Shown here: piece by piece, positions 1 to 10,932 of the stretch
How the letters are laid out: the number at the start of each line of letters is the position of its first letter
Position numbering within the stretch: position 1 is the stretch's first letter
Source: Verrucomicrobiota bacterium
GTDB lineage: Bacteria; Verrucomicrobiota; Verrucomicrobiae; Chthoniobacterales; UBA10450
Assembly (NCBI GenBank): GCA_003219495.1
Contig: QHOZ01000167.1
Coordinates: 1 to 11,107, forward strand
Direction of reading: 5' to 3'
DNA length: 11,107 nucleotides
The notes under the pieces: generated by a model
Databases searched by the model: none
What the model saw: only the letters and a program-made list of their open reading frames with translations
Told to the model about the DNA's origin: nothing
Program-made: the position numbers and the translations under genes

Positions 1-2254
1 CAAGATCGACAATTTTCTCGCGGACGCGCTCGATCGACATTAGGCGATTGTGCAGAGAATAAACCTGGCCCTGGCGATCGAGCTCGCGCTTGATCGTGTC
101 ACGAATGATTCGTTCGTCGTAACCGGAGACGATCGTTTCGACCGGCAAACGATTGAGCGGCGGCGTTTCGATCGTCGACATATCTTTCACGCCGACGAGC
201 GAAAGGTAAAGCGTGCGCGGAATCGGCGTCGCCGAAAGCGTTAGCACGTCCACGAGCTTGAAGAGCTCTTTGAATTTTTCTTTGTGCAAAACGCCGAAGC
301 GCTGTTCCTCGTCGATGACGACAAGGCCGAGATCTTTGAAAACGACGTCGCCGGAAATCAATCGATGCGTGCCGATTACAATGTCGACTCCGCCCTGGCG
401 CAGCAGCTGAAGAATTTTTTTCTGCTCACCCTGCGTGCGGAAACGGCTGAGCATTTCGATTCGCACCGGATAATCGAGCATGCGCTGCCGAAAAACTTCG
501 AAATGTTGTTGCGCAAGCACAGTGGTCGGCGCGAGGACCGCGACTTGTCGTCCATCCATTACCGCTTTGAACGCGGCGCGAATCGCCACTTCGGTTTTGC
601 CGAAGCCGACGTCGCCACAAATCAAACGGTCCATCGGACGCGGACGTTCCATGTCGATCTTCGCGTCGATAATCGCTTTCAATTGGTCGGGCGTTTCGCG
701 GAACGGAAATGAATGCTCGAATTCCCGCTGCCACTTCGTGTCCGGACCGAACGCGTGGCCGGGAACGGTTTCGCGCTCGGCCTGGACCGTGAGCATTTTG
801 CCGGCATAATCGAAAATCGAGGACGCGGCCGCCTTTTTTGCGCGCGCCCATTTTGCGTCAGCGAGCGAGCTCAGTTTCGGCGAGCGTTTGCCGACGCCGA
901 CATAACGCGAAACCAAGTAAGCTTGCTCGAGCGGAACATAGAGCTTTGCTTCTTCGGCGAACTCGAGCGCGAGAACTTCCTGTTCCCCATTGTCCGATGT
1001 CGGAATTTTAGTGAGACCGTTAAAGCGGCCGACGCCGTGCTCGAGGTGAACAACGAGATCGCCTTCGTTCAGCTCGCTGAAATCGATCTGCGCTCGATGG
1101 CGCTCCGCGTGATAAAGGCGGCGACGCGCGTGCGGCGCGAATCGCCCGAACAATTCGGCCGCAGACAAAATGACAAGGTTGGCCGCGGGAAAGCAAAAAC
1201 CGCGCGCGAGTGTGCCGAGGACAAGATCGACATCATGCAACGCGTCGGCGCTGATCAATTCGCGAAAACGCTCAATCTCGCCTTCAGTTTGAAAATAGAT
1301 GACGACGCGCGCGTTGTTCTTTTTCCATTCGCCGAGATGCTTGATGAATTGGTCCCGCTTCGCTTCCGCGAGCAGAAAATCGCCGACCGCGAACTCGCCA
1401 ACATCGCAATCCTGGAATGCTCCGCCGAAATCTTCGGGGCCGTCCTCGATCCAGCTTTCACTGATTTGAATGTGCGCCCTGGAATCTTCCGCCGGCTCGA
1501 TCTCGATCGTCAGATCGTCTTTGCCGATGTAATCGCGAACGACGCCGCTTTTGTCGTCCGCCGCGCCGAGGAGGACGTCGATCTTGCGCAGGTCGCGCAC
1601 GGAAGTTTGCGTATCGATGTCGAACTCGCGGAGCGATTCGATGGTGTCGCCAAAGAATTCTACGCGCGCCGGCAGCGGCGCTTGCCATGAGTAAAGATCG
1701 ACAATGCCGCCGCGAACCGCGAATTGCCCGCGCGTTGTCACTTGCGGGACGCGGTCGTAACCGGCGGCGCTTAATTTCTCGAGCAATTGCTCCATCGTGG
1801 AGCTCGCGCCGCGTTTCAGCGTTAAGGTCGCGGACGAAACGGCTCCTCGTTTCGGCGCCGGCTGGTCAAGGCTCGCGCGGGTCGTGACAATTACTTGCCG
1901 GCCCGCTTCACGATCGATCGTCGCAAGCAGCGCCAAACGCTCGGCGGCAATTTCGGGATCGGGCAGAATATTTTCAACGGCGGCGAATTCCGCTTCGGGA
2001 AGAAATTGCGTGCCCGGCAGCCAATTTTGAATCGTTTCGAAAAGTGAATCTTGCATGCGAACGGTTGGACAAAGAATCCAAATCGTTTTCGAAACGCTTC
2101 GCGCGATGAACGCGGCGAGAAAGGCCTGCGCCGGCCAAATGACGTGTGAAAATTTAACCGGCGCGCCTTGAGCTCCGATCCGTGCGAGCTTGCGCGCAAT
2201 CGCGTCGGATTGCGCAACGCGCTCGAGCAATTGATTCGCCAGCGGCGTTTCCAC
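1..2254 (-). CDS. mfd: Transcription-repair coupling factor Mfd, N-terminal 751 codons (C-terminus beyond left edge)
   Basis: Mfd is a DNA translocase that pushes stalled RNA polymerase off damaged DNA and recruits UvrA for nucleotide excision repair. Read on the minus strand, the frame is open from 2254 to the edge. The UvrB-like module is near residues 1-230, with [11 protein letters not shown] at 180-190; R181, R197 and F201 line up with the E. coli UvrA-contact residues R165, R181 and F185. The RNA-polymerase-interacting (CarD-like) domain follows at about 393-460 ([14 protein letters not shown]). The helicase core has Walker A GDVGFGKT at 547-554, the DEEQ box at 648-651 and SATPIPRT near 672. 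The start is GTG at 2254: an in-frame TAA lies at 2275-2273 and no other start codon lies between. About 350-400 C-terminal residues are missing from the window. The stretch between the UvrB-like module and the D3-like region is roughly 100 residues shorter than in E. coli. Family assignment is secure. Confidence 0.96.
2..11 (+). repeat. AAGATCGACA word, copy 1
   Basis: Exact 10-mer, inside mfd; in the mfd frame it encodes the Val-Asp-Leu phase (IVDL). Confidence 0.7.
652..661 (-). repeat. AAGATCGACA word, copy 2
   Basis: Exact 10-mer on the minus strand, inside mfd; Lys-Ile-Asp phase (AKIDM). Confidence 0.7.
1223..1232 (+). repeat. AAGATCGACA word, copy 3
   Basis: Exact 10-mer, antisense to mfd; Val-Asp-Leu phase (DVDLV). 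Confidence 0.7.
1577..1585 (-). repeat. AAGATCGAC word, copy 4 (9-mer only)
   Basis: The one copy followed by G instead of A; inside mfd, Lys-Ile-Asp phase (RKIDV). Confidence 0.65.
1694..1703 (+). repeat. AAGATCGACA word, copy 5
   Basis: Exact 10-mer, antisense to mfd; Val-Asp-Leu phase within the conserved GGIVDLYS segment. Confidence 0.7.
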
Positions 2255-2259
2255 CCGCG

Positions 2260-2274
2260 AAGTTCGCCGAACTT
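2260..2274 (-). promoter_or_regulatory. Short perfect hairpin just before the mfd start codon
   Basis: AAGTTC and GAACTT form a perfect 6-bp stem around a 3-base loop. It ends five bases upstream of the mfd GTG, where a ribosome binding site would lie. No Shine-Dalgarno-like purine run is visible there. It could lower translation initiation, be a small dyad operator, or be chance; there is no T-run, so it is not a convincing terminator. Confidence 0.3.
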
Positions 2275-2286
2275 AGCGGCGATTCA

Positions 2287-2296
2287 AAGATCGACA
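2287..2296 (+). repeat. AAGATCGACA word, copy 6 (intergenic)
   Basis: Exact 10-mer in the 43-base gap between the L,D-transpeptidase and mfd, one base past the L,D-transpeptidase stop codon. Read in the gene direction it is TGTCGATCTT. Confidence 0.75.
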
Positions 2297-2297
2297 G

Positions 2298-2909
2298 TTA
2301 ATTTGAGATCGTGACCGGAGTGCCGACGGAAACGGATTTGAAAAATTCCTTGGCCATGAATTCCGGCATTCGAATGCAGCCGTGCGAAGCGGGATAGCCC
2401 GGGAGATATCCGGCGTGCATTCCAAAGCCCGGCGCGATCTGCATATAATATGGCATCGACGCGCCTTTGTAATGCGCTCCCGGCGGCTTCCTATCTTTTT
2501 CGACGTCGACGTTTGGCATGACGATATTTCCAGCGTCATCGACGTAATCGCCATATCGGCTGGAAGCGTGCGCGATATCTTTCTTAACGACGCTGAATTT
2601 TCCCAACGGCGTGTTTAAGCCTTCCCGGCCGGTCGAGAGCTGCGAAATCCCGACGAGCATATTGTTTTTGTAAAAGTAAGCGCGCTGTTCTTTGAGGCTG
2701 ATTTTGACCAAAGGTTTACCGCCGATGTGATCCCCGTCCCAATAAGAGATGTTGTCATTCGGCGCGCCGCTGGTGGGCTGATTTCCGTAAACCCCGCCCA
2801 GGTATTGGGTTTGGCCGGAGTAACGCACGTCCTCCGTGCACCCGGCGAAGAGCAAAGCGGAAACAGCAACCAGTGCGAAAATGGAGAAACGATTAAATAA
2901 CGAACGCAT
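2298..2909 (-). CDS. L,D-transpeptidase (YkuD domain) lipoprotein
   Basis: This is a 203-residue exported enzyme expected to make 3-3 cross-links in peptidoglycan or to attach proteins to it, using an active-site cysteine. Residues 1-23 form a lipoprotein signal peptide (MRSLFNRFSIFALVAVSALL) ending in FAGC, with C24 as the lipidated residue; Phe at -3 is slightly off the usual Leu. The YkuD domain spans about 66-202: a typical strand-rich start (LVKISLKEQRAYFY), TPLGKF at 100-105, H165, and the signature SHGCIRMP at 175-182 with catalytic C178 and conserved R180. Length and domain order are normal for the family. The gene lies 43 bases upstream of mfd on the same strand, so the two may be co-transcribed; I know of no functional reason for the pairing. 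No strong Shine-Dalgarno precedes the ATG. Confidence 0.93.
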   Translation of the reverse strand: MRSLFNRFSIFALVAVSALLFAGCTEDVRYSGQTQYLGGVYGNQPTSGAPNDNISYWDGDHIGGKPLVKISLKEQRAYFYKNNMLVGISQLSTGREGLNTPLGKFSVVKKDIAHASSRYGDYVDDAGNIVMPNVDVEKDRKPPGAHYKGASMPYYMQIAPGFGMHAGYLPGYPASHGCIRMPEFMAKEFFKSVSVGTPVTISN

Positions 2910-3038
2910 AAAAACTTTTCGGCGAAACCCTTTACCGGCGATGCATTCAAAGTCAAGGGGACGGGTCTCGTTAGCCCCGCCAGAATTCCTCGGAGAGCGC
3001 GGCTTGAATTGTGCTTTCTAGCAGGGAGCGTCTCGGGC
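2910..3038. promoter_or_regulatory. Divergent intergenic region between the L,D-transpeptidase and fmdB-like genes
   Basis: These 129 bases separate two genes that face away from each other, so promoters for both directions should be here or overlap the gene starts. I could not pick out a convincing -35/-10 pair. AGGGAG at about 3024-3029 lies roughly ten bases before the ATG at 3039 and is the only good Shine-Dalgarno sequence in the window. Confidence 0.4.
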
Positions 3039-3389
3039 ATGCCGACGTACGACTATCACTGCCAGAAATGCGACAAGAATTTCGAGATGTTTCAATCAAT
3101 GCGAGACGAAGCGCTTCGGCAATGTCCCAAGGAACTTTGCCGTTTGCCCAAATGGGGGCATGGCAAAGTGAAACGCCTCCTTGGCACCGGCGCCGGGATT
3201 ATTTTCAAGGGCTCGGGTTTTTACGTCACCGATTATCGCAGCAAAGCGTATCAGGAAGCGGCCAAGAAAGAATCGCCCGCGGCCAGCTCGTCCGAAAAAT
3301 CTTCGGCCGGAAAAGAAACGAAACCTTCCCCGGAAAAAAAATCTACGTCAACCCCAGCAACTAAACCGAAAAAAGAATCGGCGGCATGA
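3039..3389 (+). CDS. FmdB-type zinc ribbon protein
   Basis: This is a 116-residue protein of the FmdB/CxxC_CXXC_SSSS zinc-ribbon family, whose cellular role is not established (the name comes from a proposed regulator of formamidase/amidase genes). It opens with the family signature MPTYDYHC. Likely zinc ligands are C8, C11, C29 and C34, so the second knuckle is C-x4-C, not the C-x2-C of many homologues; I recall this spacing in other Verrucomicrobia. The segment KVKRLLGTGAGIIFKGSGFY (47-66) is the conserved core and is followed by TDYRS. From about residue 75 the protein becomes a Lys/Ser/Thr/Pro-rich tail, probably disordered. The frame extends upstream to 3009, but ATG 3039 is chosen for the invariant MPxYxY start and the AGGGAG sequence before it. 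The stop overlaps the next start (ATGA), implying translational coupling. Confidence 0.9.
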   Translation: MPTYDYHCQKCDKNFEMFQSMRDEALRQCPKELCRLPKWGHGKVKRLLGTGAGIIFKGSGFYVTDYRSKAYQEAAKKESPAASSSEKSSAGKETKPSPEKKSTSTPATKPKKESAA

Positions 3390-4141
3390 CGACTACAACT
3401 ACAGAACCAGCGAAAAAGGTTATTTGCACGGAGTGCCGGCACGACAACGAGGCCGAGCGCATTTACTGCCACAATTGCGGCGAGCGACTCGACCGCTCAG
3501 TCGTTCTGGCCAAGAAGAAGGGCACGGATCCAGGCGAAGAGCACCGTCGTTTGCAGAAAATGATGGAAGGCCCGAGCAAGCTTCGCCAGAATTTTTTCGC
3601 GGTCGCCAAAGTGGCGTTGGGCGCAGCGGGTGCGGCTGCACTGGTGTTAATTGCAACGCCGGCGGAAGTTCCGGCGCCGACAAAGGTGATCCCGCCTCAA
3701 ATGGATCTCGATCTTGAAAGCGCGGCGTCGTTTCAAAAACCCGGACCACTCGAGTATTCGCAAGAACAGGTGAACGCATATCTCGCGTATCGTTTAACGA
3801 GCAAGAAGAAGGCGTTGAACAAACCGTTCCTGGATTTCGTGCGCGCGTCAGCATCGTTCCACGACAGCGCCTGCACGATCGCGATGGAGCGTTCGCTTTT
3901 CGGATATTCCATTTTCACGCGATCCTCTTTTCGCATCGAAACCGGTGGCGGAAAAACAGCCGTGCAGAACGTCGGCGGTTGGATCGGACAATTGCCGGTT
4001 CATCCCGCGATCATGCAATACGGGAACATCATCTTCGCGGATTTGTGGAATGCGCTCGATCGCGAGCACAAGCTTGTCGCCAAGATGGCGGCGGTAAATT
4101 TCCACGACGCGGGAGTGACGATCACTCCGCCGTCACGCTAA
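3386..4141 (+). CDS. Zinc-ribbon protein with one transmembrane helix, function unknown
   Basis: I do not recognise this 251-residue protein as a named family. It begins with a compact zinc ribbon: C14-x2-C17 and C28-x2-C31, ending CHNCGERL. A basic and polar linker follows (about 35-69), then one hydrophobic helix at about 70-90 (FFAVAKVALGAAGAAALVLI) and a Pro-rich stretch. The C-terminal 150 residues form a globular-looking domain that includes YSQEQVNAYLAYRL (about 124-137), a pattern seen in proteins whose predicted job is at the membrane. The arrangement suggests a cytoplasmic zinc ribbon and an external domain anchored by the helix. It starts inside the stop codon of the fmdB-like gene, so the two zinc-ribbon proteins are probably made together. 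No function is assigned. Confidence 0.85.
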   Translation: MTTTTTEPAKKVICTECRHDNEAERIYCHNCGERLDRSVVLAKKKGTDPGEEHRRLQKMMEGPSKLRQNFFAVAKVALGAAGAAALVLIATPAEVPAPTKVIPPQMDLDLESAASFQKPGPLEYSQEQVNAYLAYRLTSKKKALNKPFLDFVRASASFHDSACTIAMERSLFGYSIFTRSSFRIETGGGKTAVQNVGGWIGQLPVHPAIMQYGNIIFADLWNALDREHKLVAKMAAVNFHDAGVTITPPSR

Positions 4142-4144
4142 AAA

Positions 4145-4178
4145 GGAAGGGCCGGGAGCCCGAATGGACTCGCCGGCC
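4145..4178 (-). terminator. Probable rho-independent terminator of the peptidoglycan-binding-protein gene
   Basis: On the minus strand GGCCGG (4178-4173) pairs with CCGGCC (4155-4150). After a one-base bulge, GAG (4171-4169) pairs with CTC (4158-4156), giving nine pairs around a 10-base loop. The stem is followed on that strand by C, then TTCCTTTT. It lies 26 bases past the stop at 4204 and between two convergent genes, so it may also slow transcription from the plus strand, where the following sequence is much less T-rich. Confidence 0.5.
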
Positions 4179-4203
4179 AACCAACCAATTTGTTCGTATT
4201 CGT

Positions 4204-4851
4204 TTAGTAACGAAGACCCATGCTGCGAACTAACGGTCCACTGACTGTGCCGTCCATGCGCAGACCATGGTCGCGTTCGTAGGCGCGAATCGCGAAACTC
4301 GTTCCCGGTCCCATGATTCCGTCAATCGGGCCGCGATAATAACCCATGTGGGCCAATCGCGTTTGCACCGCGATCACGACTGAGCCGTGGCCGTAGCCGT
4401 AATCATTGTAGGAATAGGCGCCGTAATTGTAGTTGTACGGGTACGAACTGTAGCCGTACGGGTAATAGCCGCCGTAGTACGGTGAACCGAATCCGAAGGA
4501 AATCGACGGACCGTAGTTGTAGCCATAGGACGGATAACCGTAACCATAGCCGCTGCCGTAACCGTACGAGCTGTACGGATAACTGCCGCTACGCGTTACC
4601 ACGCGTGTTCGAGTTTGGACCGGCGCGCCGGTCGTTCCGGTGACGTATCGCGTGTTTCCGCTGCGCGTCACGACGCGCTGAGTTCTCACCGCGCGGTTTG
4701 TTTGTTTACTGGTGACTGTGGTAGTCGCAGTAGGCTTGCTCGCTCGCACTTTTGTTTTGGTGCGAACCTGGTCATTCCCTGAGGCCGCCATGAGCGACCC
4801 GGTCAACAAAGCCCCTGTGACCACGCTTACTAGTATGCGTTTTGTATTCAT
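4204..4851 (-). CDS. Exported Tyr/Gly-rich protein with C-terminal peptidoglycan-binding domain
   Basis: This is a 215-residue secreted protein. Residues 1-23 look like a signal peptide (NTKRILVSVVTGALLTGSLM, then AAS). A Thr/Arg-rich region follows (about 24-90) in which RVVTRSG occurs twice, at about 59-65 and 83-89. Residues 91-154 are a low-complexity run of Tyr, Gly, Ser and Pro. The last 60 residues match a peptidoglycan-binding type 1 domain: VQTRLAHMGYYRGPIDGIMG (162-181), then GTSFAIRAYERDHGL and DGTVSGPLV. The domain should tether the protein to the cell wall. The Tyr/Gly segment could be structural or surface-exposed; its role cannot be read from sequence. It is divergent from the 414-residue gene and convergent with the zinc-ribbon gene. 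Confidence 0.87.
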   Translation of the reverse strand: MNTKRILVSVVTGALLTGSLMAASGNDQVRTKTKVRASKPTATTTVTSKQTNRAVRTQRVVTRSGNTRYVTGTTGAPVQTRTRVVTRSGSYPYSSYGYGSGYGYGYPSYGYNYGPSISFGFGSPYYGGYYPYGYSSYPYNYNYGAYSYNDYGYGHGSVVIAVQTRLAHMGYYRGPIDGIMGPGTSFAIRAYERDHGLRMDGTVSGPLVRSMGLRY

Positions 4852-4971
4852 AAGCCTGTAGAAATTAGACGGGCTTACGTGCCGATAGTTTCACTTTATT
4901 TGCGATAAATTTCGGATCGTGCTGGCAATTGCGCGCCCCGGGCAATTATCCTGCCTCGAACTGTTTGTCGG
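4852..4971. promoter_or_regulatory. Divergent intergenic region with an AT-rich core
   Basis: These 120 bases lie between two genes that diverge. An AT-rich block at about 4888-4913 (containing TTTATT and GATAAATTT) stands out from the GC-rich surroundings and is the likeliest place for promoters on both strands. I could not fix a -35/-10 pair with confidence. No open frame is visible in it. Confidence 0.4.
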
Positions 4972-6216
4972 GTGAAATCCACTATTCTCCTCGGACTCGC
5001 GCTCGGTGCGTTGTCGATCTTTGCTCTTGAATCAGGGGCGAACGACGTCCTCGAGCGCAGCATCAGCCCATCGCGGCAATTCGTAATCTATGGGGGCGAT
5101 GCCGGTTTGCGCGGCGCGATCTCGACCTTAGCGGAGCGTTTGAAGGGTGATGTGCTCGGCGTTCTGGAACAGCGTGATAACTGGAAGACGGCGGCAGTGA
5201 TCAATTTGCAGGCGCGCGCCGCGAACCTGCCCGAAGTCCCGATGAGCGCGTTTCACGTCAGTCAAACGCCGTCCGGGTTGAAGCTTCAACTGGATTTGAC
5301 GATTTCGCGTGAGCTCAATCCGGAAACGCTCGAGCGCGAAATTCTGCGTCTGATTTTGCTCGAGATGATTTATCGCAAGCAGACCGGCATCGCGTCCGGT
5401 GAAACGTATGTCACTCCGCCGCCATGGCTGGTGGAAGGATTGCTCGCGCTCGGGCCGAACGGTGACCGCGGATCGCTGGTCAACATGCTGAACGTTTCGC
5501 AGCGCGTTCCATCGTTGGAAGAATTTCTGCAGCAGCGTCCTGAACTGCTCGACTCAGCGAGCCGCGCGATTTACCGCGCGTATTCGTTCGCGTTCGTGCA
5601 ATTGCTCGCGAACGATCCGAATCAGCTCGGCCGTTATATCGATAATCTCACTTTCAGCACGAACGATTCGCTTGCCGATTTGCAAAAAAGTTTTCCGCGG
5701 CTCGCGGGCAAGGATTTCGAAAAAACCTGGCGAGCGAAGATCGACAACGTCATCGATTCGCGGCGGACGGAGCTTCTGGGCTTCGGTGAAAGTGAAGCAC
5801 AGCTCGAAGCGCTGCTTCAGGCACTTTCACTGGAAGCGCTTTGCCACAAGAAGTTGGACGCGACGCAAAAACTCGAACTGAAAAAGTTCAGCGAAGACTT
5901 GATGCTTCTCGCCGCGCACGCAAATCCTGCCCTTCGCCCGATCGTTGAGAACTATCAGCAGCTCGCCGCGCAACTCGCGCTCGGGAAAAATCACGGTGTC
6001 GCCGCGAAATTGAGCGACCTGAAAAAATTGCGGATGCAGCTCGGTGCGCGCATGAGCGAGATCGACGATTACATGAATTGGTTTGAGGCGACGCAGCTAA
6101 AGACCGCCAGCGGTTTGTTTGAAACGGTCAAGGTTTCGCTCGATCCGAGTGAGACCCGCCCGCGTCGCCACGATAATTTTTCGACCTATCTCGATGCGAT
6201 GGAATCGCAGTTTTGA
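4972..6216 (+). CDS. Exported hypothetical protein, peptidase MA-like but apparently lacking zinc histidines
   Basis: This is a 414-residue protein with no firm family name. The first 23 residues form a signal peptide (KSTILLGLALGALSIFAL, then ESGA), which supports the GTG start at 4972; no Shine-Dalgarno is evident. The centre resembles the peptidase MA-like (gluzincin) arrangement: a helix at about 121-135, then PPPWLVEGLLAL at 149-160, a helix YRAYSFAFVQLLA at 201-213, and FEKTWRAKID at 249-258. In active relatives the first helix carries HExxH and the E of WLxEG is the third zinc ligand. Here the aligned segment reads REILR (122-126), so both histidines appear to be Arg. The C-terminal part (about 265-375) is helical and rich in Leu, Ala and Gln. 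If the match is right, it is a pseudopeptidase. The fold assignment is inference from motif spacing only. Confidence 0.82.
   Translation: MKSTILLGLALGALSIFALESGANDVLERSISPSRQFVIYGGDAGLRGAISTLAERLKGDVLGVLEQRDNWKTAAVINLQARAANLPEVPMSAFHVSQTPSGLKLQLDLTISRELNPETLEREILRLILLEMIYRKQTGIASGETYVTPPPWLVEGLLALGPNGDRGSLVNMLNVSQRVPSLEEFLQQRPELLDSASRAIYRAYSFAFVQLLANDPNQLGRYIDNLTFSTNDSLADLQKSFPRLAGKDFEKTWRAKIDNVIDSRRTELLGFGESEAQLEALLQALSLEALCHKKLDATQKLELKKFSEDLMLLAAHANPALRPIVENYQQLAAQLALGKNHGVAAKLSDLKKLRMQLGARMSEIDDYMNWFEATQLKTASGLFETVKVSLDPSETRPRRHDNFSTYLDAMESQF
5737..5746 (+). repeat. AAGATCGACA word, copy 7
   Basis: Exact 10-mer inside the 414-residue gene; Lys-Ile-Asp phase (AKIDN). Confidence 0.7.
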
Positions 6217-6223
6217 GCAAGGA

Positions 6224-6233
6224 TGTCGATCTT
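6224..6233 (-). repeat. AAGATCGACA word, copy 8 (intergenic)
   Basis: Exact 10-mer, read as TGTCGATCTT on the plus strand, seven bases past the stop of the 414-residue gene. Its orientation relative to the preceding gene is the same as copy 6. Confidence 0.75.
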
Positions 6234-6247
6234 CTCGCGGCGGACAG

Positions 6248-6276
6248 TTGCTCGCGCGACTTTTGCTGATTAAGAT
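6248..6276 (+). promoter_or_regulatory. Possible promoter for the Minf_1886 transcription unit
   Basis: TTGCTC (6248-6253) and TAAGAT (6271-6276) are separated by exactly 17 bases. They lie in the 75-base gap before the ATG at 6292. The match to sigma-70 boxes is only partial (3/6 and 4/6), and a start site from it would give a very short leader. Confidence 0.25.
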
Positions 6277-6291
6277 AGCGCGCCCTTTATC

Positions 6292-6720
6292 ATGCAGAAG
6301 ATTGGATTTGCCGAAGCCCTGGAGTCGATTGTCGCCAGCGATACACGTTATCAACGCGAGGCGTATATCTTTTTGCGCGACGCGCTCGATTACACGACGA
6401 AGCAGCAAAAGAAAGCGAAAGGGACAACGGTCCGCCACGTTTCGGGGCCGGAATTGCTGGACGGCGTTCGCCACTACGCGCTGAAAGAATTCGGCCCGAT
6501 GGTGCTGACGGTGTTCGACAATTGGGGAATCCGCTCGACCGAAGATATCGGTCACATGGTATTCAATTTGATCAACGCGGGAATTTTTGGAAAAACGGAT
6601 GAGGATTCGATCGAGGATTTCAAAAACATTTACGATTTTCGCGAAGCGTTCGTGAAGCCATTCGCGCCAGAAAAGAAAGTCGAAGCCCCGAAACATTTGC
6701 CGGCGCCGAAAACGGTATGA
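6292..6720 (+). CDS. Minf_1886 family protein (Verrucomicrobia/Planctomycetes-restricted, unknown function)
   Basis: I recognise this 142-residue protein as the Minf_1886 family (TIGR04138 as I remember it), found mainly in Verrucomicrobia and Planctomycetes; its function is unknown. The family pattern is visible throughout: MQKIGFAEALESIV at the N-terminus, DTRYQREAYIFLRDALDYT (17-35), VSGPELLDGVRHYALKEFGP (50-69), and VFDNWGIRSTEDIGHMVFNL (74-93) followed by INAGIFGKTDED. The final 20 residues are a Lys/Pro-rich tail. There is no signal peptide or membrane helix, so it should be cytoplasmic. It starts 75 bases after the previous gene, and its stop overlaps the M16 start (ATGA), so it is probably the first gene of the unit running through the M16 and DUF1844 genes. 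Confidence 0.9.
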   Translation: MQKIGFAEALESIVASDTRYQREAYIFLRDALDYTTKQQKKAKGTTVRHVSGPELLDGVRHYALKEFGPMVLTVFDNWGIRSTEDIGHMVFNLINAGIFGKTDEDSIEDFKNIYDFREAFVKPFAPEKKVEAPKHLPAPKTV

Positions 6721-8324
6721 CCGGCCAAGCGCCGCGGGTGGCGCTGATTTGTGCAATCGCGTTTAGCATCGTGAACTTGAAAGCAGCGGATCGTCCTCAG
6801 TCGAAACCAACTCCGAGCGCGGCGGCGAAGAACAGAGAGCAATCGAACTGGCTCACGTTTCCGCCGAGCAGCGCGAAGAAATTCGTGTTGCCGGACGGAC
6901 TCACCATCATCGTCCAGGAAGATCGCAGCGCACCGGTAGCGAGCGTGCAGGCATGGTGCGCGACGGGCAGCATCGTCGAAGATGAAAAGCTCGGCGCCGG
7001 TCTCTCGCATATCCTCGAGCACATGCTCTTCAAAGGAACGAAGACGCAAAAGGCGAACGACATTGCGCAAAAAGTTCAGGACGTCGGCGGTTACATCAAT
7101 GCTTACACCTCGTTCGATCGCACCGTTTTTTGGATCGATGTCCCGAAAGATGGCGTCGAGAGCGCGCTCGCAGTTTTGTCGGACGCGATGATGAACTCCA
7201 CCTTGCCGCCCGAGGAATACAACAAGGAACAGGAAGTCATCCGGCGCGAGTTCGCGATGAACGTCGATGATCCCGACCGGATGTTGAGTCTGTTGTTGTT
7301 CGCGACCGCGTATCAAAAGCATCCGTATCGGCTGCCGGTCATCGGTGAGATGGAAATTTACAACCAGCTCACGCAGGAACAGGTGATGCAGTATTACAAA
7401 ACGCGTTACGTGCCGAACAATCTCACCTTCATTGTCGTCGGCGATGTCGATGCGGAAAAAATTCACCAGCAGCTCGCCGATTATTTCAAAAATTATCCCG
7501 GGAAAGCGCTCAAGCCGGTCTTTGTTCCGAACGAGCCGCCACAACTCGGCCGGCGCGAAGTGCACAACGAGTTCGCAACCGAGCTGAGTCGCCTCTCAAT
7601 CGCGTGGCATATTCCGGAGATCACGCATCCCGACGTTCCAGCGCTTGATTTGTTGGCTGGAATTTTGGGCGACGGCCGCAGCTCGCGGTTGTATCGCCGG
7701 GTTCGGGAGCAAACCGGGCTCGCCTACGGCGTGTCAGCGTTTTCCTACACACCGGGTGATCCCGGATTGTTTGGCGTCGACGCGACGGTCGATCCCAAGA
7801 AGCGCGATGAGGCGCAGAAACTGATTTTGCAAATGATCGACGAAATCAAACAGGCGGGCGTGACCGCCGACGAGCTGGTGAAGGCGCAGAAAATGTCGCT
7901 CGCGCATCATTTCGACGCGCTCACGACGATGCGCGGTCAAGCCTCCGATATCGGATCCAATTGGTTGCTGACGCGAAACCTGGATTTCAGCCGCCATTAC
8001 TTGATTGCGGTGCAGAAAGTAACGCTCGCTGACATTCGCCGCGTCGCCGCGAAATATCTTGTCGATCAAAACCTGACCGTCGCGTCGTTGAATCCGAAAG
8101 GCTCGGTCGGCCCGAAACAGGAAGCTTCGAAACCGCCGGCCGCGGCTGAGATTCAAAACTTCGAATTGTCGAACGGGCTGCGGTTGCTCGTGCGCGAAGA
8201 CGCGCGCTTGCCGCTTGTTTCTATCACTGCGGTGTTCCGGAGCGGTTTGCTCGCGGAAACATCGGAGACGAAATCGAAGCGATCGGCGGTTCGATTTCCA
8301 GCGAAGCCGGGAACAACAGCATGA
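6717..8324 (+). CDS. M16 (insulinase-like) zinc peptidase, N-terminal part of a two-module protein cut short by a frameshift
   Basis: M16 peptidases are zinc proteases that degrade peptides in a clamshell chamber; bacterial two-module forms are usually exported. This frame gives 535 residues. Residues 1-24 look like a signal peptide (VALICAIAFSIVNLKAA). The first module (about 50-460) is complete: inverted zinc motif HILEH at 98-102, the downstream acidic cluster with the third ligand at about 171-178 (EQEVIRRE), and the partner-half Arg/Tyr region RVREQTGLAYGVSAFSY at 328-344. The second module starts normally (FELSNGLRLLVREDARLPLV, 482-501) and runs to about E514. After that, 21 residues of unrelated frame lead to TGA at 8324, while the true continuation is in another frame. 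The full gene would span 6717-9325. Its start overlaps the Minf_1886 stop. The catalytic module could still fold, but M16 enzymes normally need both halves. Confidence 0.88.
   Translation: MTGQAPRVALICAIAFSIVNLKAADRPQSKPTPSAAAKNREQSNWLTFPPSSAKKFVLPDGLTIIVQEDRSAPVASVQAWCATGSIVEDEKLGAGLSHILEHMLFKGTKTQKANDIAQKVQDVGGYINAYTSFDRTVFWIDVPKDGVESALAVLSDAMMNSTLPPEEYNKEQEVIRREFAMNVDDPDRMLSLLLFATAYQKHPYRLPVIGEMEIYNQLTQEQVMQYYKTRYVPNNLTFIVVGDVDAEKIHQQLADYFKNYPGKALKPVFVPNEPPQLGRREVHNEFATELSRLSIAWHIPEITHPDVPALDLLAGILGDGRSSRLYRRVREQTGLAYGVSAFSYTPGDPGLFGVDATVDPKKRDEAQKLILQMIDEIKQAGVTADELVKAQKMSLAHHFDALTTMRGQASDIGSNWLLTRNLDFSRHYLIAVQKVTLADIRRVAAKYLVDQNLTVASLNPKGSVGPKQEASKPPAAAEIQNFELSNGLRLLVREDARLPLVSITAVFRSGLLAETSETKSKRSAVRFPAKPGTTA
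8256..8261 (+). other. Deletion/frameshift junction inside the M16 gene
   Basis: Up to GAA at 8256-8258 the frame encodes SGLLAE, as expected for the start of the second M16 module. From ATC at 8261 the frame in register with the downstream ORF encodes IGDEIEAIGGSISSEAGNNS, also expected. Comparison with the first module shows that about 25 residues that should lie between them are absent, and the reading frame changes. The lost part corresponds to the helix bearing the (often degenerate) HxxEH in module two. It could be a real mutation or an assembly error. Confidence 0.75.
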
Positions 8325-9325
8325 GTGTCGGCGTGCACGTGATGAAGCCCGACGTGAAGACCGGCGTTGGTCTGCTCGCCGATGTTTTGTTGAACGCGAC
8401 GTTTCCCGACAACGTGGTCACGCGCGAGAAGCAGGTCCAAATCGCCGGGATCAAACAGGAAGAAGAGCAGCCGACGACGGTTGCGCGGAATATTTTGCGG
8501 CACGCGTTGTTTCAGGAGCATCCCTACGCGTTGCGCGCGAACGGGGCGCCGGAATCGGTGGAGCGCCTGGCCCAAAAAGATCTCGTCGCTTTCCGCGACA
8601 AATATGTCGTCGCCAAAAATGGCGTGATCTCCGTTTTCGGCAACGTGAACGCGAACGAAGTGAAACAGTTATTCGAAGAAGCGCTCGGCAAAATGAAAGC
8701 CGGCGAGCTCGCGCTTAGCAGCGTGCCGCAGCCGCCGACGATCTCGAAAGTTGAAAGCGTCGACGCGAGTAAAGAAAAAGCGCAGGGCGTGATCATGGTC
8801 GGCTATCGCGGCGTCGACATGTTCAGCAAAGATCGACATGCGCTTGAATTGATCGACGAAGCGAGCAGCGATCTCGGCTCGCGATTTTTCATCCGCATCC
8901 GCGAAAACATGGGCCTGGCGTATTACGTCGGCGCGATGCAGATGCAGGGACTCGTGCCCGGCGTGTTCGCGTTTTACCTCGGGACGGACCCGCAGAAAAT
9001 CGAGCCGGTGAAAACAGCGTTGCTCGACGAGATTGGAAAACTGGCGAGCGAAGGCTTGAGCGAAGCCGAGCTTAATCGCGCGAAGAAGAAGTTGATTGGG
9101 CAACATCAGATCGCGATGCAGAGCACCGACTCGTTCGGGTTCCAATCCGCGCTCGATGAGATCTACGGGCTCGGCTTCGATTATTACAAGAAGATCGACA
9201 ACGAAGTGAACGCGGTGACGCTTGAGGAGATTAAGAGCGTGGCGGCGAAATATTTCCGCGATCAACCCTACGTCTTAGCAACTGTGCGACCGCCGGAAGG
9301 AACGCCAGCCGCGAAACAAAAGTGA
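8321..9325 (+). CDS. M16 peptidase, C-terminal part of the second module (frameshifted remainder)
   Basis: This frame holds most of the second, normally non-catalytic, M16 module. Coding similarity already begins at 8261, upstream of the ATG (IGDEIEAIGG), so ATG 8321 is merely the first start codon in the frame. It overlaps the TGA of the upstream half (ATGA), which could permit coupled re-initiation by chance. The 334 residues show typical M16 features: REKQVQIAGIKQEEEQPTTV (36-55), the strand motif NGVISVFGNVNANEV, and the substrate-binding Arg/Tyr region RIRENMGLAYYVGAMQM, followed by a helical end with YFRDQPYVLATVRPPE. A protein started here would lack the first strands and helix of the module, so it would be unlikely to fold alone. 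It ends three bases before the DUF1844 gene. Confidence 0.8.
   Translation: MSVGVHVMKPDVKTGVGLLADVLLNATFPDNVVTREKQVQIAGIKQEEEQPTTVARNILRHALFQEHPYALRANGAPESVERLAQKDLVAFRDKYVVAKNGVISVFGNVNANEVKQLFEEALGKMKAGELALSSVPQPPTISKVESVDASKEKAQGVIMVGYRGVDMFSKDRHALELIDEASSDLGSRFFIRIRENMGLAYYVGAMQMQGLVPGVFAFYLGTDPQKIEPVKTALLDEIGKLASEGLSEAELNRAKKKLIGQHQIAMQSTDSFGFQSALDEIYGLGFDYYKKIDNEVNAVTLEEIKSVAAKYFRDQPYVLATVRPPEGTPAAKQK
8829..8838 (+). repeat. AAGATCGACA word, copy 9
   Basis: Exact 10-mer in the second M16 half, in a third coding phase (Ser-Lys-Asp-Arg-His). Confidence 0.7.
9191..9200 (+). repeat. AAGATCGACA word, copy 10
   Basis: Exact 10-mer in the second M16 half; Lys-Ile-Asp phase (KKIDN). Confidence 0.7.
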
Positions 9326-9328
9326 ACC

Positions 9329-9754
9329 ATGGCTGAAGTCCAAAAAGCAACGCAGAGCGGCGAAATGTCCCAGCGCTTCATCGAGTTCGTGATGATGCAC
9401 GCGCAAAACGCGGCGCTTTTTCTAGGCCAAATTCCGAATCCGAAAACCGGCCAGGGTGAAGTGAATCTCGAGCTTGCGAAAATGTTCATCGATCAACTCG
9501 CGATGATTCAGGAAAAAACGCGCGGCAATCTGACCAGTGAGGAAGCGACCGTCTTGAAAAACACGTTGTCGAATTTGCAGATGCTGTACGTCGAGATCTC
9601 GCGGTCGCCGCAAGCAGCGGCTTCGGTGCCGCCTTCGTCCGAACCGGAGCCGGAAGAGTCAACATCCGCCGCGGAGCAGCCGCCGGCTTCGTCTGAGCCC
9701 CCGCCCCCGGAAGGCGAGTCGAAGAAAAAATTCACGAAGAGCTACGGCTCGTGA
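9329..9754 (+). CDS. DUF1844 domain protein
   Basis: This is a 141-residue protein whose first 95 residues match DUF1844, a small helical domain of unknown function. Visible family features are FIEFVMMHAQNAALFLGQIP (17-36), NPKTG, LELAKMFIDQLAMIQEKTRG (47-66), NLTSEEATVLKNTLSNLQML (67-86) and YVEISRS. The rest is a low-complexity Pro/Glu/Ser-rich tail ending in a basic KKKFTKSYGS. No signal peptide is present, so it is presumably cytoplasmic. It begins three bases after the M16 stop, so it should be the last gene of that unit. A perfect hairpin lies just past its stop codon. Confidence 0.9.
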   Translation: MAEVQKATQSGEMSQRFIEFVMMHAQNAALFLGQIPNPKTGQGEVNLELAKMFIDQLAMIQEKTRGNLTSEEATVLKNTLSNLQMLYVEISRSPQAAASVPPSSEPEPEESTSAAEQPPASSEPPPPEGESKKKFTKSYGS

Positions 9755-9762
9755 ATTGAACA

Positions 9763-9779
9763 GACGCGGCCTTCGCGTC
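9763..9779 (+). terminator. Hairpin after the DUF1844 gene, weak terminator candidate
   Basis: GACGCG (9763-9768) and CGCGTC (9774-9779) make a perfect 6-bp GC-rich stem with a 5-base loop, starting nine bases after the TGA. No T-run follows, so it is not a classic rho-independent terminator; it may stabilise the transcript end or be chance. The 77-base gap otherwise contains nothing recognisable. Confidence 0.3.
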
Positions 9780-9831
9780 GTCGAAGAAGACGCTTGCCGC
9801 CGGATCATCGTCGGGCGGCGATCTCAATGGG

Positions 9832-10932
9832 ATGCACGCGAGGGCAAAAAATGGGAACGGCAACGGTTCGAAACTCGTCGCCGAAGCAATTGAAGCGGCT
9901 GAGGAAGCGGGTCTGCGTTATATCAGCGATGACCGCGCTGGCTACACGCGCAGGAAAAAAGGCGACGACTTCGAATATTTGGATACCGACGGAAAACCGG
10001 TCCGCGACGAGCAGCGCTTGCTGCGCTTGAAGCGGCTGGGGATTCCACCTGCCTGGACGGACGTATGGATTTGTCCGTCGTCGAATTGCCACATTCAAGC
10101 AACCGGACGGGATGCGCGTCGTCGCAAACAATATCTTTATCACGAACGGTGGCGCGAAATTCGCGATGAAAATAAATACGATCGCATGATCGCGTTCGGC
10201 AAAGCGCTGCCGAAAATTCGCAGACGCATGTCGGAGGATTTGAAGTTGGCGGGATTACCGCGCAATAAAGTTCTGGCGACGGTGGTGCAATTGCTCGAGC
10301 GCACTTTCATCCGCATCGGCAACGAAGAGTACGCGCGCGAAAACAAATCATTCGGTCTGACGACGATGAAAGATCGACACGTGGAGGTGAAAGGATCGAA
10401 ATTGCGTTTTCGATTTCGCGGCAAGAGCGGCAAGGACCACGACGTGGACGTGACCGACCGGCGAATCGCGAAAATTATTTCCAGGCTGCAAGATTTGCCC
10501 GGTCAGGATTTGTTTCAGTACGTCGATGACGACGGCGAAGTGCACAACGTCAGCTCGCAGGACGTGAACGAATATCTCCGTGAGATCACCGGCGAAGATT
10601 TCAGCGCGAAAGATTTTCGGACTTTGGCGGGCACAGTTCTGACCGCGGTTGCGCTCAATGCTCAGGAAAAGTTCGAGACCAAGAAACAAGCCAAGTCCAA
10701 CGTCACAACGGCGGTCAAAGCCGTTGCTCAAATTCTCGGCAACACGCCCGCCATTTGCCGGAAGTGCTATGTTCATCCGGCGATTTTCGAAAGTTATCTC
10801 GGTCAAAAATCAATCGAGGGTCTCAAACAAATGACCGAAGAAGCGCTCGAGCGGGACGATGTCGATCTTCGCTCGAGCGAAAAAGCCGTTTTGAAGTTTC
10901 TCGAAGCGCGGCTTGCGAAAAAAGCGGCGTAA
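9832..10932 (+). CDS. DNA topoisomerase IB (poxvirus-like bacterial type)
   Basis: This 366-residue enzyme relaxes supercoiled DNA by nicking one strand through a 3'-phosphotyrosine. The N-terminal domain (about 25-110) has the family pattern LRYISDDRAGYTRR, DTDGKPVRDEQRLLRLKRLG, PPAWTDVWICP and HIQATGRDARRRKQYLYH. The catalytic domain shows the full active site: R161 (IRIGNEEYA), K198 (FRGKSGKDHDVDV), R263 (KDFRTLAGT), N304 and nucleophile Y313 (CRKCYVHPAIFESY). The spacings 37, 65, 41 and 9 equal those I remember for the Deinococcus radiodurans enzyme (R137, K174, R239, N280, Y289). DFRTL has Leu where DFRTW is common. ATG 9832 is the only usable start: an in-frame TGA lies at 9757 with no other start codon between. 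The length, slightly above that of Deinococcus, comes from the N-terminal extension and an acidic/basic C-terminal tail. Confidence 0.95.
   Translation: MHARAKNGNGNGSKLVAEAIEAAEEAGLRYISDDRAGYTRRKKGDDFEYLDTDGKPVRDEQRLLRLKRLGIPPAWTDVWICPSSNCHIQATGRDARRRKQYLYHERWREIRDENKYDRMIAFGKALPKIRRRMSEDLKLAGLPRNKVLATVVQLLERTFIRIGNEEYARENKSFGLTTMKDRHVEVKGSKLRFRFRGKSGKDHDVDVTDRRIAKIISRLQDLPGQDLFQYVDDDGEVHNVSSQDVNEYLREITGEDFSAKDFRTLAGTVLTAVALNAQEKFETKKQAKSNVTTAVKAVAQILGNTPAICRKCYVHPAIFESYLGQKSIEGLKQMTEEALERDDVDLRSSEKAVLKFLEARLAKKAA
10370..10379 (+). repeat. AAGATCGACA word, copy 11
   Basis: Exact 10-mer in the TopIB gene, third coding phase (Met-Lys-Asp-Arg-His). Confidence 0.7.
10860..10869 (-). repeat. AAGATCGACA word, copy 12
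   Basis: Exact 10-mer on the minus strand in the TopIB gene; Val-Asp-Leu phase (DVDLR). Confidence 0.7.

What the first reader, a model, noticed from the sequence alone, without database searches (positions are those of the whole stretch)
2..10869. Highly iterated word AAGATCGAC(A): a candidate DNA uptake sequence or other genome-wide signal
AAGATCGAC or its complement occurs 12 times in 11.1 kb (2, 653, 1223, 1577, 1694, 2287, 5737, 6225, 8829, 9191, 10370, 10861), and 11 of these extend to AAGATCGACA. Base composition at roughly 57% GC predicts about 0.07 copies of the 9-mer in both strands. I counted about 16 sites with the core GATCGAC, and 12 carry the AA prefix, so the excess is not just GATC or CGA richness. 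Coding preference alone is a poor explanation: the word appears in three phases (Lys-Ile-Asp, Val-Asp-Leu, Lys-Asp-Arg), on both strands and twice in the 5% of the window that is intergenic. A density near one per 0.9 kb is like that of known uptake sequences (Haemophilus, Neisseria) or HIP1 in cyanobacteria. Alternatives are a motif for replication, segregation or recombination, or a methylation-linked word.
Basis: partly seen in the sequence, partly recalled or inferred. Interest (0 to 1): 0.78.

Follow-up and report, generated by a model that had tools for sequence, protein, structure and literature searches.

The report
Candidate DNA-uptake word in soil Verrucomicrobia
A ten-letter DNA word repeated far more often than chance in this soil bacterium is repeated thousands of times in some relatives' genomes, and behaves like the 'password' that some other bacteria use to take up only their own kind's DNA; if proven it would extend that system to a very different group of bacteria.

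Summary
The window lies among Chthoniobacterales. Its own genome is not held, but relatives carry the word genome-wide: 4,653 copies in 2.9 Mb of G001, strand-symmetric. There it is the top 10-mer, uses all six coding phases, alters proteins (KID 351 against 41 expected), is enriched between genes and has the core AAGATCGACAW. Exact copies exceed one-mismatch copies 4:1. Word sites are conserved between species. A 105-kb conjugative-type island has none. An unrelated word, GCCTAACGA, dominates a sister clade; G001 carries both. Words are sparser and decayed in the Udaeobacter clade, where a PilQ/HofQ-like secretin and a PilT copy of the relatives were not found. ComEC and DprA are present in nearly all tested genomes. 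Best reading: a DNA-uptake-sequence-like signal kept by biased natural transformation, with clade dialects. No receptor was identified and uptake is untested; two relatives with that machinery have few words.

The parts
2..11 (+). AAGATCGACA-A, inside mfd (gene on - strand)
   Evidence: identical at the aligned place in L001, L066, L068
652..661 (-). AAGATCGACA-T, inside mfd
   Evidence: identical in L001, L066, L068
1223..1232 (+). AAGATCGACA-T, inside mfd
   Evidence: one or two mismatches in L001, L066, L068
1577..1585 (-). AAGATCGAC followed by G: a one-off copy inside mfd (exact word at this place in L066)
1694..1703 (+). AAGATCGACA-A, inside mfd
   Evidence: one mismatch in L001, L066, L068
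2287..2296 (+). AAGATCGACA-G, intergenic between mfd and an L,D-transpeptidase gene
5012..5021 (-).
   Evidence: identical in L068
5737..5746 (+). AAGATCGACA-A, inside ORF 4972-6216
   Evidence: not conserved in L001, L066, L068
6224..6233 (-). AAGATCGACA-T, intergenic between ORFs 4972-6216 and 6292-6720
8829..8838 (+). AAGATCGACA-T, inside M16 peptidase ORF 8321-9325
   Evidence: identical in L068, one or two mismatches in L001 and L066
9191..9200 (+). AAGATCGACA-A, inside M16 peptidase ORF 8321-9325
   Evidence: not conserved in L001, L066, L068
10370..10379 (+). AAGATCGACA-C, inside topoisomerase IB gene 9832-10932
   Evidence: identical in L001, L066, L068
10860..10869 (-). AAGATCGACA-T, inside topoisomerase IB gene 9832-10932
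   Evidence: identical in L001, L066, L068

Best explanation
The word, 11-bp core 5'-AAGATCGACAW, is a DNA-uptake-sequence-like signal of a clade of Chthoniobacterales. Proposed mechanism: a surface component of a type IV pilus machine (a minor pilin, not identified) binds the word on extracellular double-stranded DNA; PilT-type motors retract it through a PilQ/HofQ-like secretin; ComEC passes one strand inward; DprA and RecA recombine it. Because fragments with the word enter more often, recombination keeps restoring exact words and spreads new ones wherever a mutation makes one. Lineages that lose the machine stop restoring them and the words decay; lineages whose receptor changes acquire another word (GCCTAACGA). 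Shown: genome-wide exact iteration, symmetry, coding-independent placement, site conservation between species, absence from one probably acquired island, a second word in a sister clade, and lower, more decayed word content in the clade where one secretin and one PilT copy were not found. Inferred: that the word is read during DNA uptake, by which protein, and that biased uptake rather than selection for another use maintains it.
For: Counts: G001 4,653 AAGATCGACA in 2.9 Mb, 2,314 forward and 2,339 reverse, reversed-word control 0. Top 10-mer of G001 against an order-3 Markov model, 970 vs 7.2 in 663 kb; still first at orders 5 and 6. Order-wide: 44 of 213 genomes have more than 100 AAGATCGACAW by my reading of the table, all inside one block of 83 (G001-G012, G117-G187); the 130 others have 0-33. 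One-off words near background at the inner positions; G001 as a whole has 5,772 at up to one mismatch against 4,653 exact, i.e. +24%; Frye 2013 reports +21% for kingDUS, 5,918 copies in 2.4 Mb (passages). All six coding phases; rare codons forced: RST as AGATCGACA 106 vs 0.2 from codon usage, CRS 21 vs 0.0, VDL peptide 500 vs 102. Intergenic 339 of 1,589 sites against 14.6% non-coding, crude gene caller. Site conservation, window vs G001: 6 of 7 identical against 11.5% of other 10-mers; with amino acids conserved 5 of 5 against 28.9%. Island G001 C14 354,865-459,713: no word in 104.8 kb, the next largest gap on the contig being 5.3 kb; it has TraG-like P-loop and heavy-metal efflux genes. Machinery: ComEC 26 of 28, DprA 28 of 30, PilT family above cut-off 28 of 30. 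Lineage test: the PilQ/HofQ-like secretin is found in 40 of 45 searched genomes outside the Udaeobacter clade and 0 of 35 inside (E <= 1e-40); PilT copy X (87% identity or more, three of them partial) likewise in 40 of 45 and 0 of 35. Word density median 362/Mb (14 first-word genomes assigned the machine by clade) vs 61/Mb (35 without); one-off/exact ratio 0.98 vs 2.37 (24 of the 35 had both counts); Spearman density vs ratio -0.91 over 38 genomes.
Against: No receptor was found and no uptake experiment exists. ComEC and DprA are also present in word-less relatives, and the outgroup G015, with few words, has a PilT set and a secretin of similar length, so the machinery does not imply the word. 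G007 and G120 keep both the secretin and PilT X but have only 64 and 42 words per Mb, strongly decayed. Conversely in G163 and G186 neither was found, yet they keep 290 and 324 words/Mb with ratios near 1. More perfect than one-mismatch copies holds in only 3 of 9 first-word genomes with both counts. The machinery loss is one clade, so it may be one evolutionary event, confounded with genome reduction; 30 of the 35 clade members keep other PilT homologues. The density-ratio correlation is partly mechanical. The 15/16-bp tandem spacing is not a feature of uptake sequences in the passages I read. The genomes with known record titles are MAGs or draft assemblies, so single absences are weak.
Confidence: 0.68

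Rival explanations
1. The word is the binding site of an abundant intracellular DNA-organising protein (nucleoid-associated, segregation or repair factor), kept by direct selection at each site.
For: Pairs of words at exactly 15 bp (43) or 16 bp (21) on one strand, about 1.5 expected per distance, and one at 17-26 bp, look like cooperative binding by one protein. Sites are positionally conserved between species. Weak flank signal reaches to about +21.
Against: The inner positions show one-off words only near background level, whereas regulatory binding sites have a more relaxed consensus (argued in PMC1626085, passages). A 105-kb island lives without it. Density varies from 13 to 1,557 per Mb among related genomes and another unrelated word is dominant in a sister clade.
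Confidence: 0.14
2. A HIP1-like, methylation-linked word: a methyltransferase recognising GATC or another inner sequence biases repair toward the word.
For: The word contains GATC, as HIP1 does; HIP1 also shows replacement by alternate words (PMC4390886, passages). PF02086 matches occur in two of three second-word-rich genomes tested (G010 clear, G151 weak, not G152) and in G148.
Against: Not palindromic; 10-11 specified positions; GCCTAACGA contains no palindrome of four bases or more by inspection. GATC-keeping neighbours of the word are mostly near background. PF02086, the Dam-type family, was not found in 11 of 12 high-density first-word genomes tested (only G148 has it). Other methyltransferase families were not searched.
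Confidence: 0.07
3. A Chi- or KOPS-like polar signal for recombination or segregation.
For: Non-palindromic, frequent, genome-wide.
Against: No polarity: 532 forward and 538 reverse on the 737-kb contig C14, largest cumulative excess 20; the origin of replication is not located. The density is high for Chi (recalled).
Confidence: 0.04
4. Codon-pair or peptide preference (KID, VDL, RST) without a DNA-level signal.
For: Some phases are preferred (VDL and KID hold 764 of the 1,196 in-frame copies).
Against: All six phases, codon choices far above codon usage (RST codons 106 against 0.2), intergenic enrichment; the tripeptides themselves are over-represented up to about 8.6-fold.
Confidence: 0.01

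Closest known systems
DNA uptake sequence (DUS) of Neisseriaceae, read by the minor pilin ComP
   Same: Exact 10-12-mer at high density, few one-off copies in the densest genomes, dialects that follow the phylogeny, one genome with two dialects, close pairs of words (S. muelleri dyads) (PMC3630211, passages seen)
   Different: Different phylum; unrelated letters; the two words here share no core, whereas all DUS dialects keep CTG; close pairs here are direct, at 15/16 bp; no ComP homologue identified; uptake untested
Uptake signal sequence (USS) of Pasteurellaceae
   Same: About one per kb, strong consensus, no orientation bias, arises by mutation rather than insertion, subclade-specific types, decay where competence genes are broken (PMC1626085, passages seen); weak T-rich flank 3' of the core here
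   Different: 3' flank much weaker than the AT-rich USS segments; different letters; receptor unknown here
HIP1 of cyanobacteria
   Same: Highly iterated word containing GATC; alternate words in some species (PMC4390886, passages seen)
   Different: HIP1 is palindromic and tied to methyltransferases; this word is not palindromic and no such link was found in the one family searched
Chi sites
   Same: Short over-represented non-palindromic word
   Different: No polarity on the contig tested

Membership tests
DNA uptake sequence (DUS/USS) | 9-12-bp word massively over-represented across the whole genome | tested here: met
   (relatives; the window's own genome is not held)
DNA uptake sequence (DUS/USS) | About one copy per kb without orientation bias | tested here: met
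   G001 1.6/kb, 2,314 vs 2,339; C14 532 vs 538; window 12 in 11.1 kb. Most other word-carrying genomes are below 0.7/kb
[quoted passage not shown]
   Met in the densest genomes: G001 4,653 vs 1,119, G002 1,509 vs 884, G008 1,419 vs 1,282; i.e. 3 of the 9 first-word genomes with both counts, before subtracting background. G003 (996 vs 1,017) and G004 (1,016 vs 1,096) are about equal; G005, G006, G007, G009 not met
DNA uptake sequence (DUS/USS) | In coding and non-coding DNA, enriched in non-coding | tested here: met
   Intergenic 339 of 1,589 vs 14.6% non-coding, crude caller
DNA uptake sequence (DUS/USS) | Dialects congruent with phylogeny | tested here: met
   Mfd tree of 67 rows; genomes rich in one or the other word fall in separate clades except G001, which holds both. 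G148, not in the tree, stands among second-word genomes in the listing but carries the first word
DNA uptake sequence (DUS/USS) | Natural transformation genes present (type IV pilus, secretin, retraction ATPase, ComEC, DprA) | tested here: met
   in relatives; ComEA, PilD and RecA were not searched; none among the ten window ORFs scanned
DNA uptake sequence (DUS/USS) | Dedicated receptor (ComP-like minor pilin) | not tested
   Only a motif scan for prepilin-like ORFs in part of G001; no receptor proposed
DNA uptake sequence (DUS/USS) | Word increases DNA binding, uptake or transformation | not testable with these tools
   Needs an experiment
HIP1-like highly iterated palindrome | Palindromic word | tested here: not met
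   AAGATCGACAW and GCCTAACGA are non-palindromic
HIP1-like highly iterated palindrome | Cognate methyltransferase in word-rich genomes | tested here: inconclusive
   PF02086 not found in 11 of 12 high-density first-word genomes; found in second-word-rich G010 and weakly G151, not G152; other families not searched
Chi / KOPS | Orientation bias relative to replication | tested here: not met
   No polarity along the 737-kb contig C14; replication origin not located

The most novel reading that the evidence does not exclude
Verrucomicrobiota evolved their own DNA-uptake passwords, and within one family the password switched between two words that share no core (GCCTAACGA and AAGATCGACAW), with at least one lineage (G001) keeping both at high density. 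That implies two different receptors or receptor replacement rather than gradual dialect drift, and a tandem 15/16-bp arrangement read as a unit.
Probability: 0.4. Interest if true: 0.9.

Novelty: new variant of a known kind. Interest (0 to 1): 0.8.

Why it matters
As far as I recall, uptake words are established only in Neisseriaceae and Pasteurellaceae. Four library searches pairing uptake-sequence or transformation terms with names of this group gave no paper except one review, which was not opened; a fifth on Verrucomicrobia with competence genes listed six papers whose titles concern other organisms or questions, none opened. A third, unrelated origin in a soil lineage would show that self-recognising DNA uptake evolves repeatedly. 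Two unrelated words in one family, clades at every stage from saturation to decay, and a machinery loss in one of them make the origin, switching and death of uptake specificity testable by comparative genomics. It would also predict frequent within-species recombination in bacteria known here mainly from metagenomes.

Tried and rejected
Literature searches for the bare letters (145 papers hold AAGATCGAC, 20 listed; 49 hold GCCTAACGA, 8 listed): no listed title concerns this group and none was opened. Further general searches on uptake sequences and HIP1 were seen as listings; of these only PMC3630211, PMC1626085 and PMC4390886 were looked into, as passages. A whole-machinery correlation was only partly successful: ComEC, DprA and PilT families do not discriminate; the secretin and PilT X do so by clade only, and G180 and G185 keep a more divergent PilT pair. 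Higher-order Markov models absorb the words: GCCTAACGA in 1.14 Mb of G001 is 662 against 15 (order 3), 424 (order 5) and 652 (order 6) expected. No receptor was found: the prepilin motif scan gave four ORFs in 1.14 Mb of G001, none tested further. Rows dropped: the tree used 66 of 80 fetched loci plus the window; three of 83 family handles (G131, G141, G143) were left out, so the 'noX' label of G141 and G143 means not searched. In one search, 14 word-carrying genomes were grouped as 'with the machine' by clade although PilT X was not found in G117. One-off ratios were computed for 24 of the 35 Udaeobacter-clade genomes.
Full report
Observation. AAGATCGAC occurs 13 times in 11,107 bases against 0.16 in shuffles; 12 extend to AAGATCGACA. 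Ten window ORFs were scanned with Pfam: they include an Mfd fragment, an L,D-transpeptidase, a peptidoglycan-binding protein, an M16 peptidase in two ORFs, a DUF1844 protein and a type IB topoisomerase; none is a competence gene.

Whose genome. No genome is held for the window. Its Mfd finds Chthoniobacterales MAGs at up to 86% identity and falls in a well-supported group with G004-G007 and G120, with G001 as the next branch.

Genome-wide word. Twelve whole genomes were counted first: AAGATCGACA 4,653 in G001 (2.9 Mb), 1,509 in G002, 1,419 in G008, 1,016 in G004, 996 in G003, 713 in G005, 654 in G006, 240 in G009, 227 in G007, and 19-33 in G010-G012; the reversed-word control gave 0-3. Forward and reverse counts are nearly equal. 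Across 213 genomes of the order, AAGATCGACAW exceeds 100 copies in 44, by my reading of the table, all inside one block of 83 genomes; the other 130 have 0-33.

Anatomy in G001. In 663 kb it is the most over-represented 10-mer (970 against 7.2, order-3 model); in 1.14 Mb it has 1,748 copies against 12.5, 188, 594 and 1,325 at orders 3, 5, 6 and 7, ranking first at orders 5 and 6. The eleventh base is A or T in 97%; weaker preferences are SGC before the core and WYKDC then T-rich to +18 after it, also seen in sites that have no neighbour within 60 bp and, for the part up to +15, in intergenic sites. One-off variants are near background at the inner positions; the main tolerated ones are T at the first, G at the second, C at the third and G at the ninth position. 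Direct pairs occur at 15 bp (43) and 16 bp (21) against about 1.5 expected, with one at 17-26 bp. Placement is otherwise roughly random (spacing CV 0.99).

Not a coding effect. Of 1,589 sites 339 are intergenic (21% against 14.6% of bases; crude caller), and the rest use all six phases. KID occurs 351 times against 41 expected, VDL 500 against 102; AGA-TCG-ACA encodes RST 106 times against 0.2 expected from codon usage, and TGT-CGA-TCT encodes CRS 21 times against 0.0. Words therefore bend both codon choice and protein sequence.

Maintenance. At about 75% DNA identity, window word sites are identical at 6 of 10 places in L068, 4 of 9 in L066, 4 of 10 in L001 and 6 of 7 in L074 (G001), against about 11% of other 10-mers; two lower-density relatives gave 1 of 6 (L003, background 8.7%) and 2 of 6 (L065, 6.0%). 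With amino acids conserved: 5 of 5 against 29% for L074. Numbers are small and come from one locus. In G001 positions 354,865-459,713 of contig C14 hold no word, the next largest gap being 5.3 kb; about 175 would be expected at the contig's density. The stretch has similar GC and word-rich flanks, a TraG-like P-loop protein, a helicase of restriction type and heavy-metal efflux genes among eight proteins scanned: probably DNA acquired by conjugation that has not gained words. GCCTAACGA is reduced there too, 11 in the ten bins 360-460 kb.

Second word. GCCTAACGA is also iterated in G001 (383 against 8.9 in 663 kb, order 3) and is the top 9-mer in the sampled 389 kb of G151 (491 against 9.0), where inner one-off words are at background and 15/16-bp pairs are absent. 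Whole genomes: 4,605 in 4.3 Mb of G151; above 1,000 in 7 of 213. The words share no core. On the Mfd tree genomes rich in one or the other occupy different clades, G001 having both; G148, not on the tree, stands among second-word genomes in the listing but has the first word (671) and little of the second (60).

Decay. Across 38 first-word genomes the ratio of one-off (above background from six word-less genomes) to exact words rises as density falls, 0.20 in G001 to 3.37 in G120 (Spearman -0.91, partly mechanical). The Udaeobacter clade (G009, G154-G187) has median 61 words/Mb against 362 in 14 others.

Machinery. ComEC 26 of 28, DprA 28 of 30, PilT family 28 of 30 above cut-off, secretins 29 of 30. 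A 617-aa secretin, closest by profile to PilQ and next to GspD and the DNA-uptake porin HofQ, though below the curated cut-offs, stands apart from other pilus genes beside mqn and recJ/recG-like genes (names from sequence inspection). It is found in 40 of 45 family genomes outside the Udaeobacter clade and 0 of 35 inside; PilT copy X shows the same split, 40 of 45 (three partial) and 0 of 35. So a specific pilus machine seems missing in the clade with decayed words. Against a simple rule: G007 and G120 have both genes and few words; in G163 and G186 neither was found and they hold 290-324 words/Mb; ComEC and DprA are also present in word-less genomes; 30 of the 35 clade members keep other PilT homologues; and the loss may be one event.

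Comparison with print. Passages of PMC1626085 list for USS/DUS: about one copy per kb, no orientation bias, more perfect than mismatched copies, non-coding preference, origin by mutation rather than insertion, weak USS in H. ducreyi with broken competence genes. Passages of PMC3630211 give kingDUS 5,918 in 2.4 Mb, +21% with one mismatch, and S. muelleri with two dialects and paired words. G001 has 4,653, +24%, two words and paired words. HIP1 (PMC4390886, passages) is palindromic and methyltransferase-linked, unlike this.

Verdict. A real genome-wide word, most likely a DNA-uptake-type signal (0.68), with clade dialects and decay. Uptake, receptor and mechanism of maintenance are inferred.

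Noticed in passing
L111-L116 (G001 contig C14, 354,865-459,713): 105-kb island without AAGATCGACA and with few GCCTAACGA, word-rich flanks, TraG-like P-loop, NOV_C, restriction-type helicase and heavy-metal efflux genes: probably an integrated conjugative element
   Followed up: partly
G151, G010, G152, G147, G149, G150, G001 (whole genomes): A second iterated word, GCCTAACGA, up to 4,605 copies per genome; it contains a stop codon in one frame of each strand
   Followed up: yes
G001 sample, 1.14 Mb: Word pairs in direct orientation at exactly 15 or 16 bp and one at 17-26 bp
   Followed up: partly
window 6717-9325: M16 peptidase gene split over two overlapping ORFs in different frames near 8321; a frameshift (real or sequencing error) in the second M16 unit is likely
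   Followed up: no
L169:14869-16722 (minus) and its counterparts: PilQ/HofQ-like secretin gene beside recJ/recG-like genes, not found in any of 35 Udaeobacter-clade genomes
   Followed up: yes
L149:18664-19128 (plus): 154-aa protein without a Pfam match directly after the PilT-PilT pair; a similar ORF follows the pair in G148 (L153:8266-8736, minus)
   Followed up: no
window 9832-10932: Bacterial type IB (eukaryote-like) DNA topoisomerase with two copies of the word
   Followed up: no
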